Source: an uncultured Phascolarctobacterium sp. (GTDB lineage Bacteria; Bacillota; Negativicutes; Acidaminococcales; Acidaminococcaceae). From it: 64,000 nt of DNA. Positions 17,626 to 27,294 of this stretch are shown in pieces. Where the stretch lies: positions 62,001 through 126,000 of the forward strand of contig CASFZG010000014.1 of NCBI GenBank assembly GCA_949299135.1, in the 5' to 3' direction. Position 1 is the stretch's first letter, and the number at the start of each line of letters is the position of its first letter. Made by a program: the position numbers and the translations under genes. The notes under the pieces were generated by a model that searched no databases, was not told the DNA's origin, and saw only the letters and a program-made list of their open reading frames with translations.

Positions 17626-18810
17626 TTACGAGCATAAATAAAGGATTCTGTTCCTGAATCTGTTAAAATTCCTGATGCCGAAGCTGATTCGTTTCAGGAC
17701 TTTAATCTTGTTGTTAACACCTTCAGTATAACCATTGGATAGTTTATGTTCGACGATAGATGTTATCTCGTTGCTCCATTTGGTGAAGGTAGTAATACAG
17801 TGTTTAAATTCAGGAAGGTTAAACTGTTCTGCCAGAAAGAACCAGTTCTGTAGTTCATTTTTAGCTTCGAATTAAGTTTTAGCTTTAAATATGCTGTAGA
17901 ACCTTTCTTTTAGAATATGTGCTTGTTCCAGTTCATATGAAGCTGCCAGCATTCTATTTAAAACCAGCTTATCTTCGATATCCAGCTTTGCTTCCAGGGT
18001 AAGCAATATCTTCTTACTCCTTTTAAACCATTTACGGCGCTCCGTATAAAACTCTTTCTGGATACGTTTCCAGACAGCTTCCATGCTCCATGTTACAAGC
18101 CTGATAACGTGAAACTTATCTGCTATTATTTTAGCATTAGGGAACAAAGTATTAATGGCTGACCTGAATGTGGTGCTTAAATCCATTACTACATTCTTAA
18201 CCTTAGAGCGTTCCTGTATGGGATATTGAAGGAAATGCTGGCACAAGCTCTCTGTATCCCTTTTAGGAAGGATATCCAAAACCTTGTGTTTAACTGGGTC
18301 GCTTACATTACACTGAAACTTTTCATTATTAGCATTACCCCTAAACTCATCAATACTAAAACATTCAGGCAGTTGTGGGGCACCATAACTTACCTTGTCG
18401 AACCATCTGATGATACTGGTTACGGACACACCAAGCCTACAGGCAATGGTTTTAAATGATTGCAGGTTCTGAAATTCTTTATATGCTTGAGTGTAAAATC
18501 TGCTGGTAAAATGCTGATATTTATGAACCAGGTGATTAGTTTCAGTGAAAGAATGCTGGCAGTGCTTGCAAATATACCGGCGCTTACGAAGATGGATGAT
18601 TAAGTCTTCGCCAAATATCTGGGCATCCTTAATAACCTGGATCCGGTAATCTTTAACGTATGAAGTAGAATGGCCGCAATGCTGGCAAATATGCTCTTCA
18701 CGGGGCATTTCGATATGGGCCTCGTAAGAGCCACTAGGATTTTTAACAAAATTTTTTACGATAAACCCTTTAAAAAAGGGTATATTTCGGCTATAATTGC
18801 TAGTAAGCAT
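17626..18810 (-). pseudogene. ISL3-family transposase with an internal stop
   Basis: The frame encodes a zinc-finger N-terminus (CQHCGHS near residue 38, then CKHCQHS), a helix-turn-helix region (TIACRLGVSVTSIIRWF), and the DDE core with FSIDEFRG, VVMDLSTTFR and IIADKFHVIR. A TAA at 17872-17874 interrupts it after 312 residues. Translation in the same frame then continues for 81 more residues (EGVNNKIKVLKRISFGIRNF), the normal end of ISL3 transposases. The whole, 394 codons, is of family length, so a single nonsense change probably inactivated it. I could not find convincing terminal inverted repeats. Confidence 0.85.
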
Positions 18811-19044: not shown

Positions 19045-19073
19045 TTGACTAATTTTTAGTTTTCCAGCATAAT
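19045..19073 (+). promoter_or_regulatory. Promoter of small-peptide mRNA, locus 1
   Basis: TTGACT (19045-19050), 17-bp spacer, CATAAT (19068-19073). The predicted mRNA starts near 19080 and begins with a 6-bp hairpin (CTTTCC 19089-19094 / GGAAGG 19099-19104) that covers part of the Shine-Dalgarno sequence. Confidence 0.7.
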
Positions 19074-19114
19074 ATAAAAGCCGTGACTCTTTCCGGTAGG
19101 AAGGAGGTGTTTGG

Positions 19115-19204
19115 ATGACGACAATAATAATCCCCTTCTTTGTATCTGTCGCAGCAAGTATAGCAGCGTACTATATTTGCAAGTGGCTGGACAGATACTT
19201 ATAA
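19115..19204 (+). CDS. 29-residue membrane peptide, candidate Fst-like type I toxin, locus 1
   Basis: ATG at 19115 with AGGAGG 7 bp upstream encodes 29 residues: a polar start, a hydrophobic helix (about residues 4-21) and the end ICKWLDRYL. The peptide at 27079-27168 has the same length and shares the AYYICKWLD core, which supports real coding. A hydrophobic helix followed by a charged WLD tail resembles Fst/Ldr-type toxic peptides. The 5' hairpin sequesters the ribosome site, a convergent promoter faces it, and a direct repeat of the start region lies in the antisense RNA, as in the enterococcal par locus. Toxicity is inferred. Confidence 0.7.
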   Translation: MTTIIIPFFVSVAASIAAYYICKWLDRYL

Positions 19205-19220
19205 CCACGGCCAGCACATA

Positions 19221-19250
19221 AAAAACCGGGAGTTGCAGCTCCCGGTTTTT
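19221..19250. terminator. Shared bidirectional terminator, locus 1
   Basis: The stem CCGGGAG/CTCCCGG has A6 before and T5 after, so it can end both the peptide mRNA and the convergent antisense RNA. Near-identical hairpins occur at 27189-27221 and 50557-50588. Confidence 0.85.
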
Positions 19251-19291
19251 CTTTTGATGTGTCTGAATGACAACAATCAATCCCTCTTTGT
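19221..19291 (-). ncRNA. Predicted antisense antitoxin RNA, locus 1
   Basis: A minus-strand RNA of about 70 nt is predicted from the promoter at 19298-19326 to the shared terminator. Bases 19267-19291 are a direct repeat (about 20 of 25 matched, with small gaps) of the peptide start region 19115-19143. The RNA is therefore complementary to the mRNA start codon region and to the terminator stem. This is the DRa/DRb logic of par RNA II. Ends are predicted, not measured. Confidence 0.6.
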
Positions 19292-19297
19292 GCTTAC

Positions 19298-19326
19298 ATT
19301 ATAGCACGGTTCATTATAAAAAGCAA
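19298..19326 (-). promoter_or_regulatory. Antisense RNA promoter, locus 1
   Basis: On the minus strand TTGCTT (19326-19321), 17-bp spacer, TATAAT (19303-19298). The promoter at 50642-50670 has identical hexamers and spacing. Confidence 0.75.
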
Positions 19327-27007: not shown

Positions 27008-27036
27008 TTTTCATGAACATATAAATCTGCTATAAT
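27008..27036 (+). promoter_or_regulatory. Promoter of small-peptide mRNA, locus 2
   Basis: TTTTCA, 17-bp spacer, TATAAT at 27031-27036. The transcript would open with the hairpin CTTTCC (27053-27058) / GGAAGG (27063-27068) over the Shine-Dalgarno region, as in locus 1. Confidence 0.65.
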
Positions 27037-27078
27037 AATAAACGCTGTGACTCTTTCCAGTAGGAAGGAGGTGAACGC

Positions 27079-27168
27079 ATGGAGAAACCATTAACTGCTT
27101 TTTTGGTAGCCGTCGCGGCAGCTGTAACAGCGTATTACATCTGCAAATGGTTGGATGGCTTACTATAA
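27079..27168 (+). CDS. 29-residue membrane peptide, candidate Fst-like type I toxin, locus 2
   Basis: ATG at 27079 after AAGGAGGTG encodes 29 residues with a hydrophobic helix (about residues 5-21) and the end YYICKWLDGLL. About half of the residues match the locus 1 peptide, concentrated in AYYICKWLD; the surrounding architecture (5' hairpin, bidirectional terminator, facing promoter) is also conserved while most synonymous positions differ, which indicates selection on the peptide. The role as a membrane toxin is inferred from resemblance to Fst/par systems. Confidence 0.7.
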   Translation: MEKPLTAFLVAVAAAVTAYYICKWLDGLL

Positions 27169-27188
27169 GCTCACAGCCAGCCTAAATT

Positions 27189-27221
27189 AAAAAACCGGGA
27201 GTAGCCGCTCCCGGTTTTTTT
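27189..27221. terminator. Shared bidirectional terminator, locus 2
   Basis: AAAACCGGGAG pairs with CTCCCGGTTTT around GTAGCCG-type loop bases, with T-runs on both strands. Confidence 0.85.
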
Positions 27222-27259
27222 GTTGCGTGCCCACATGGAACACCATCAACTGCTTTTGT
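27190..27259 (-). ncRNA. Predicted antisense antitoxin RNA, locus 2
   Basis: A minus-strand RNA of about 70 nt from the promoter at 27266-27294 to the shared terminator. Bases 27235-27257 repeat the peptide start region 27079-27102 (ATGGA, ACCAT and AACTGCTTTT blocks conserved), so the RNA can pair with the mRNA start. The repeat is different in sequence from locus 1, implying locus-specific pairing. Confidence 0.6.
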
Positions 27260-27265
27260 AAGTAA

Positions 27266-27294
27266 AGCATAACACCATTTTACTAAACCGTCAA
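27266..27294 (-). promoter_or_regulatory. Antisense RNA promoter, locus 2
   Basis: On the minus strand TTGACG (27294-27289), 17-bp spacer, TATGCT (27271-27266). Confidence 0.7.

What the first reader, a model, noticed from the sequence alone, without database searches (positions are those of the whole stretch)
19045..19326. Par-like type I toxin-antitoxin locus 1 with a 29-residue membrane peptide
Convergent promoters face each other across a shared bidirectional terminator. The peptide mRNA begins with a hairpin over its Shine-Dalgarno. The antisense region 19267-19291 repeats the start of the peptide frame (19115-19143). All these are hallmarks of the enterococcal par (Fst/RNA II) system, but the peptide sequence, with its ICKWLD motif, is not one I can match to a described toxin, and the host is a diderm.
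Basis: partly seen in the sequence, partly recalled or inferred. Interest (0 to 1): 0.8.

Follow-up and report, generated by a model that had tools for sequence, protein, structure and literature searches.

The report
Par-like toxin–antisense locus, undescribed toxin family
This stretch of a gut Phascolarctobacterium genome has the full layout of a small "toxin gene plus antisense RNA" switch, one of several mutually distinct copies in the genome; its toxin peptide belongs to a family, absent from the reference libraries searched, that is common in gut Clostridia and Negativicutes and also carried by some phages.

Summary
At 19045-19326 two promoter-like sequences converge on one bidirectional terminator. 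The peptide mRNA buries its Shine-Dalgarno in an 8-bp hairpin, and its 5' end pairs with its 3' side. The region beyond the terminator repeats the start of the reading frame (score 36; best of 1000 shuffles 28). A sister locus lies at 27008-27294.

The anatomy is that of enterococcal par. Its helices covary across 25 Phascolarctobacterium loci. In seven genomes all 22 toxin mRNAs pair best with their own antisense RNA (mean -45.5 vs -26.9 kcal/mol), and orthologues changed both repeats together. This is strong comparative evidence for an antisense-regulated type I module.

The peptide (…SVxASIxxYYICKWLDR…) falls below the NCBI cut-offs for Fst and C. difficile type I toxins, so it is a par-like system with its own toxin family, not an Fst. 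At least 516 relatives turned up in Bacillota genomes; phages carry it too. The same genome also holds an Fst-like par locus.

New here: the toxin reading frame itself encodes two covarying RNA helices (115 distinct sequences), so part of the peptide motif is shared with RNA structure.

Toxicity and both transcripts are inferred, not shown.

The parts
19045..19073 (+). toxin-mRNA promoter-like site TTGACT-17-CATAAT
   Evidence: same type of promoter in front of most relatives, mean best score 9.4 vs 7.2 shuffled
19080..19085 (+). 5' arm of the 5'-3' closing helix (GCCGUG), at the predicted mRNA start
   Evidence: fold; two pairs with changes on both sides in 25 relatives
19087..19106 (+). leader hairpin CUCUUUCC-GGUA-GGAAGGAG sequestering the Shine-Dalgarno
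   Evidence: SD mostly paired in the MFE fold of 94% of 112 loci
19107..19143 (+). direct repeat, toxin copy, spanning SD end, start codon and first codons
19115..19204 (+). 29-residue hydrophobic peptide MTTIIIPFFVSVAASIAAYYICKWLDRYL (putative toxin)
   Evidence: synonymous changes at K and L codons with residue kept
19142..19150 (+). 5' arm of intra-ORF helix H1 (pairs with 19190-19198)
19154..19180 (+). intra-ORF hairpin H2 (19154-19163 with 19171-19180)
19190..19198 (+). 3' arm of intra-ORF helix H1
19206..19211 (+). 3' arm of the closing helix (CACGGC)
19221..19250 (.). bidirectional intrinsic terminator shared by both RNAs
   Evidence: 12 of 12 pairs kept in all 25 relatives, 8 with changes on both sides
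19220..19291 (-). predicted antisense RNA (antitoxin), about 75 nt, 5' end near 19291
   Evidence: inferred from promoter position and terminator; fold
19259..19291 (-). direct repeat, antisense copy, complementary to the mRNA start region
19298..19326 (-). antisense promoter-like site: -10 TATAAT (19303-19298), weak -35 near 19326-19321
27008..27036 (+). sister locus 2: toxin promoter-like site TTTTCA-17-TATAAT
27044..27224 (+). sister locus 2: toxin mRNA with SD hairpin, closing helix and terminator
27079..27168 (+). sister locus 2: peptide MEKPLTAFLVAVAAAVTAYYICKWLDGLL
27226..27258 (-). sister locus 2: antisense repeat
   Evidence: score 38, best of 1000 shuffles 26
27266..27294 (-). sister locus 2: antisense promoter-like site TTGACG-17-TATGCT

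Best explanation
A chromosomal par-like type I toxin-antitoxin module. The + strand makes a compact ~175-nt mRNA (RNA I-like). Its 5' end is closed by a helix with the 3' side, its Shine-Dalgarno is locked in a hairpin, and most of the toxin ORF is folded into two nested helices, so it is expected to be stable and poorly translated. The - strand makes a ~75-nt antisense RNA (RNA II-like) that ends at the same terminator. It probably meets the mRNA first at the complementary terminator loops, then pairs at the repeat over the SD and start codon and blocks translation. If antisense synthesis stops or falls, free mRNA is slowly translated into a one-helix membrane peptide that arrests growth. Shown by comparison: the layout, the covarying helices, the cognate-specific complementarity and selection on the peptide. 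Inferred: transcription, kissing at the loops, RNA half-lives, toxicity, and the biological trigger.
For: Anatomy at both window loci. In 120 distinct loci the mRNA start matches its own downstream repeat (median 35) far better than others' (median 16, 99th percentile 28). Within seven genomes 22 of 22 mRNAs pair best with their own antisense region, mean -45.5 vs -26.9 kcal/mol, Mann-Whitney p = 4e-11. Orthologues beside thiC (L001 and L007) changed both repeats together, even with an ATG-to-TTG start change. Given structure: 97.2% of cells paired, 12 pairs with changes on both sides, 0/500 shuffles as high, slid controls 50-62%. Promoter scores above shuffles on both sides. L at codon W+1 kept in 114 of 115 with six codons used; K kept in 113 of 115 with AAA/AAG. 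Locus 2 core is 95-100% identical between species where its flanks are 85-98%. The same genome holds an Fst-like par locus with the same kind of terminator loop and repeat. Published par model: PMC7472228.
Against: No expression or toxicity data. The antisense -35 at locus 1 is weak. The U-turn motif YUNR that matters in par_pAD1 is in only 14% of mRNA terminator loops. The C-terminus of this genus' peptides is short and weakly charged (DRYL). RNA pairing inside the ORF means part of the peptide conservation need not reflect peptide function. A few relatives lack a detectable repeat.
Confidence: 0.86

Rival explanations
1. The peptide is not a killer but a small regulatory membrane protein (for example one that tunes a transporter or envelope process), kept off by the same antisense RNA; the locus is a riboregulated gene, not an addiction or arrest module.
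For: Chromosomal, at the same site in several species, with no mobile element needed to explain retention; weakly charged tail; toxicity unmeasured. Functions of chromosomal par homologues are largely obscure (PMC7472228).
Against: Several mutually distinct copies per genome, presence in phages and inoviruses, and the multi-layer translational silencing are typical of toxins.
Confidence: 0.12
2. The locus is a decayed remnant of a mobile-element addiction module with no present function.
For: An insertion sequence (transposase ORF 17872-18810) lies just upstream; relatives occur in phages.
Against: Compensatory changes keep both RNA helices and the repeat match; locus 2 core is more conserved than its flanks; locus 1 sits beside thiC in four genomes, and the match to relatives resumes just after the IS, which does not interrupt the locus.
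Confidence: 0.03
3. The toxin belongs to the described C. difficile type I toxin family (CD2517.1/CD0956.2 kind) rather than to a par-like group.
For: 10 of 27 members give weak matches to NF047374 CD_typeI_toxin, best E 6e-5.
Against: Individual bit scores seen, 13-17, are far below the cut-off of 60. Those modules pair over a long overlapping complementary region (PMC6563280), not through a repeat beyond a shared terminator.
Confidence: 0.08

Closest known systems
par locus of Enterococcus faecalis pAD1 (Fst / RNA I / RNA II) and its chromosomal homologues
   Same: Convergent promoters, shared bidirectional terminator, repeats over the translation start, SD-sequestering 5' stem-loop, upstream helix closing the 5' end, one-helix membrane peptide with a conserved tryptophan before a charged end (PMC7472228).
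   Different: Peptide below the Fst model cut-off; core motif YYICKWLD; U-turn mostly absent; several mutually distinct copies per Phascolarctobacterium genome; two covarying helices inside the ORF.
Lpt system of Lacticaseibacillus rhamnosus plasmids
   Same: 29-residue toxin, RNA I/RNA II with a 24-nt complementary repeat, UH and SL (PMC5608710).
   Different: Plasmid-borne beside repB, different peptide; reported structures are single-sequence predictions.
C. difficile type I modules (CD2517.1-RCd8, CD0956.2-RCd10 and others)
   Same: Short hydrophobic peptides, convergent antisense RNA, phage association, weak similarity to NF047374.
   Different: Long overlapping complementarity; lysine-rich tails; scores far below cut-off.
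Fst-like par locus in the same genome (G000:C12:84064, locus L149)
   Same: Same leader hairpin idea, same terminator loop type GAGCGGCAACUC, repeat over the start.
   Different: Peptide of the Fst kind (PLLAPLIAD...WWLNKR), no ICKWLD motif; 21.3 bits against a cut-off of 26.

Membership tests
par-like type I TA locus (RNA architecture) | convergent promoters sharing one bidirectional intrinsic terminator | tested here: met
   (sequence only; transcripts not measured)
par-like type I TA locus (RNA architecture) | direct repeats placing antisense complementarity over the translation start | tested here: met
par-like type I TA locus (RNA architecture) | 5' stem-loop sequestering the Shine-Dalgarno | tested here: met
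par-like type I TA locus (RNA architecture) | upstream helix sequestering the extreme 5' end | tested here: met
   (96.7% of cells paired; two pairs with both sides changed)
par-like type I TA locus (RNA architecture) | U-turn (YUNR) in the mRNA terminator loop (seen in pAD1; not in all homologues) | tested here: not met
   14% of 120 loci; PMC7472228 says it is not universal, so not disqualifying
par-like type I TA locus (RNA architecture) | toxin inhibits growth; antisense RNA protects | not testable with these tools
   needs expression experiments
Fst toxin family (NF033608 / PF13955) | score above the curated cut-off | tested here: not met
   window peptide: no match; best relative L147 24.3 bits against 26
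Fst/Ldr superfamily | conserved tryptophan between membrane helix and charged C-terminus | tested here: met
   W in 115 of 115, but W was part of the search pattern; tails charged in Clostridia, short in Phascolarctobacterium
Fst/Ldr superfamily | P/D/S/TxxxG motif in the membrane helix | tested here: inconclusive
   G at the motif position in 35 of 115 loci; S, N or another residue in the rest, including the window peptide
C. difficile type I toxins (NF047374) | score above the curated cut-off | tested here: not met
   13-17 bits against 60
Rfam antitoxin RNA families | match at gathering score | tested here: not met

The most novel reading that the evidence does not exclude
The toxin ORF is double-coded. 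Two nested RNA helices inside the reading frame are conserved across Clostridia, Negativicutes and their phages with full Watson-Crick exchange, and they partly dictate which residues the peptide carries (SV with DR, AV with DG, SI with DR, ST with SR, SV with NR). The conserved functional unit would then be the whole folded mRNA, diversified into sets of mutually insulated modules within one genome, a design not described for par systems in the papers read here.
Probability: 0.45. Interest if true: 0.72.

Novelty: new variant of a known kind. Interest (0 to 1): 0.6.

Why it matters
It adds a widespread family of probable type I toxins, absent above cut-off from Pfam, NCBIfam and Rfam, in dominant gut anaerobes and some of their phages. 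Because each Phascolarctobacterium genome carries several copies with distinct repeats, it is a natural experiment for how antisense-toxin specificity evolves. The covarying ORF helices make it testable whether a toxin sequence is shaped by its mRNA fold.

Tried and rejected
Single-peptide family searches found nothing useful. Solved structures: no match. Rfam: none at gathering score, only chance-level matches. L005 (44% identity, inside a 430-aa frame) was treated as a chance match. Filing it as an Fst was rejected because the curated cut-off is not met; filing it with the C. difficile toxins likewise. A U-turn-led kissing mechanism as in pAD1 was considered but the motif is not conserved. 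Chance origin of the repeat was rejected by shuffles and by non-cognate controls. No paper in the held library contains the string YYICKWL; most subscription papers, including earlier homologue surveys, are not held, so prior description cannot be excluded.

Full report
OBSERVATION. The toxin-side promoter-like site is TTGACT-17-CATAAT (19045-19073). The peptide frame is 19115-19204. The terminator hairpin 19221-19250 has an A tract on one side and a T tract on the other, so it can work in both directions. The antisense -10 is TATAAT (19303-19298) with a weak -35. The repeat is longer than reported: the stretch 19107-19143 (end of the SD, start codon, first codons) recurs at 19259-19291. Its local-alignment score is 36; 1000 dinucleotide-preserving shuffles gave a mean of 15.1 and a maximum of 28. 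The mRNA folds at -67.1 kcal/mol, z = -5.5. The fold contains an 8-bp hairpin over the SD and a 6-bp helix joining the 5' end to the stretch just after the stop codon. A sister locus at 27008-27294 has the same parts.

HOST AND COPIES. The window comes from a 1.87-Mb genome in 40 contigs. A public contig with an identical peptide is labelled uncultured Phascolarctobacterium; this genus is in Negativicutes, whose members have an outer membrane (general knowledge). The genome has four complete copies and a fifth cut by a contig end. Five other genomes of the genus have three to six. Locus 1 lies beside thiC in four genomes; locus 2 keeps its neighbours in four other genomes, so both are old chromosomal residents. 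The locus 2 core is 95-100% identical where its flanks are 85-98%.

FAMILY. 58 of 200 sampled Negativicutes genomes (20 of 82 genera) match the family profile, some with up to eight copies. Viral collections hold it too: 29 loci in viral contigs, fecal phage records, and weak matches in inovirus genomes (bajarodino viruses). Fecal phage loci L033, L035 and L036 and inovirus loci L037 and L038 have the cognate repeat. PHROG family 738, of unknown function, matches 22 of 27 members.

ANTISENSE PAIRING IS COGNATE AND COEVOLVES. Over 120 distinct loci the mRNA start region aligns with its own downstream repeat with median score 35, and with those of other loci with median 16 and 99th percentile 28. 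In seven genomes with three or four compared copies, all 22 mRNAs pair most strongly with their own antisense region, mean -45.5 against -26.9 kcal/mol, p = 4e-11. The least insulated case in the window's genome is the mRNA of locus 2 with the antisense region of L003 (-40.5 against -52.6 cognate). Orthologues at the thiC site differ in both repeats together, including an ATG-to-TTG start.

RNA STRUCTURE. On 25 Phascolarctobacterium loci the three features (closing helix, SD hairpin, terminator) have 97.2% of cells paired and 12 pairs with changes on both sides; no shuffle out of 500 reached this, and sliding the partners by one to three columns drops pairing to 50-62%. In the wider set the SD is mostly paired in the predicted fold of 94% of 112 loci, and the partner is the upstream leader in 80%. 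RNAalifold proposed further helices inside the ORF.

A SECOND CODE IN THE READING FRAME. An unbiased mutual-information scan of the W-anchored codon alignment (115 distinct loci, effective number about 64) put its strongest pairs on two antidiagonals, i.e. two helices. H1 joins codons -14 to -12 with +2 to +4; H2 joins codons -10 to -7 with -5 to -2 (W = 0). The top pair, the third base of codon -14 with the first base of codon +4, is paired in 95% of loci against 40% expected, with AT, TA, CG and GC all common; one side is largely a wobble position and the other lies in the variable tail or a stop codon, so no protein-level reason is apparent. Swapping segments among loci with the same amino acids lowers pairing from 5.72 to 5.26 of 6 (sd 0.06; 0 of 500 reach it). 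Locus 2 shows the compensation in protein too: serine and arginine codons (UCUGUC/GACAGA) became alanine and glycine codons (GCCGUC/GAUGGC). The peptide is nevertheless under selection of its own: the unpaired leucine codon uses six synonyms in 114 of 115, lysine two in 113. Caution: Y, I, C, K and W were part of the search pattern for the genome scan, and ICKWLD for the viral one, so conservation at those residues is partly by selection of hits.

MECHANISM. Following the par_pAD1 model (PMC7472228) the folded mRNA should be stable and translationally closed, and the short antisense RNA should pair at terminator loops and then at the repeat, blocking the start. Loss of antisense synthesis would free the mRNA. 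The peptide has one hydrophobic stretch and would act in the membrane. The kissing step, stabilities, toxicity and trigger are inference.

WHAT IT IS NOT. It is not an Fst by the curated model (window peptide no match, best relative 24.3 bits against 26), nor a C. difficile type I toxin (13-17 against 60). The near-miss of relative L147 and the presence of an Fst-like par locus in the same genome suggest distant kinship with the Fst/Ldr superfamily, which the short lengths prevent me from proving. The pAD1 U-turn is mostly absent.

VERDICT. Real; best read as a par-like type I toxin-antitoxin locus with a toxin family of its own. New variant of a known kind. The most surprising part is the covarying RNA structure within the toxin ORF.

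Noticed in passing
G000:C12 around 84064-84120 (minus strand), L149 1300-1800: An Fst-like par locus in the same genome: peptide MEAFVNKLWEPLLAPLIADCLIAYFKWWLNKR with leader hairpin, terminator loop GAGCGGCAACUC and antisense repeat; a partial second terminator and repeat copy follows downstream.
   Followed up: partly
window 27008-27294: Second complete locus of the family, with S-to-A and R-to-G changes that preserve the intra-ORF RNA helix.
   Followed up: yes
window 17872-18810: Transposase-like ORF of an insertion sequence just upstream of locus 1; relatives in the genus match again only from about 18977 onward, so the element inserted beside, not into, the locus.
   Followed up: partly
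L033, L035-L038 (fecal phages and bajarodino inoviruses): Family members in phage genomes; in bajarodino virus 15 (L037) the locus lies between annotated genes, i.e. it was missed by annotation.
   Followed up: partly
G000:C10:79550-79612 (L155 end): A fifth copy runs into the end of its contig, so the assembly may be breaking at these repeats.
   Followed up: no
G001:C2:267077-267154 (L022): A copy with a stop codon directly after the KWLDR motif, shorter by two residues than the others in its genus.
   Followed up: no
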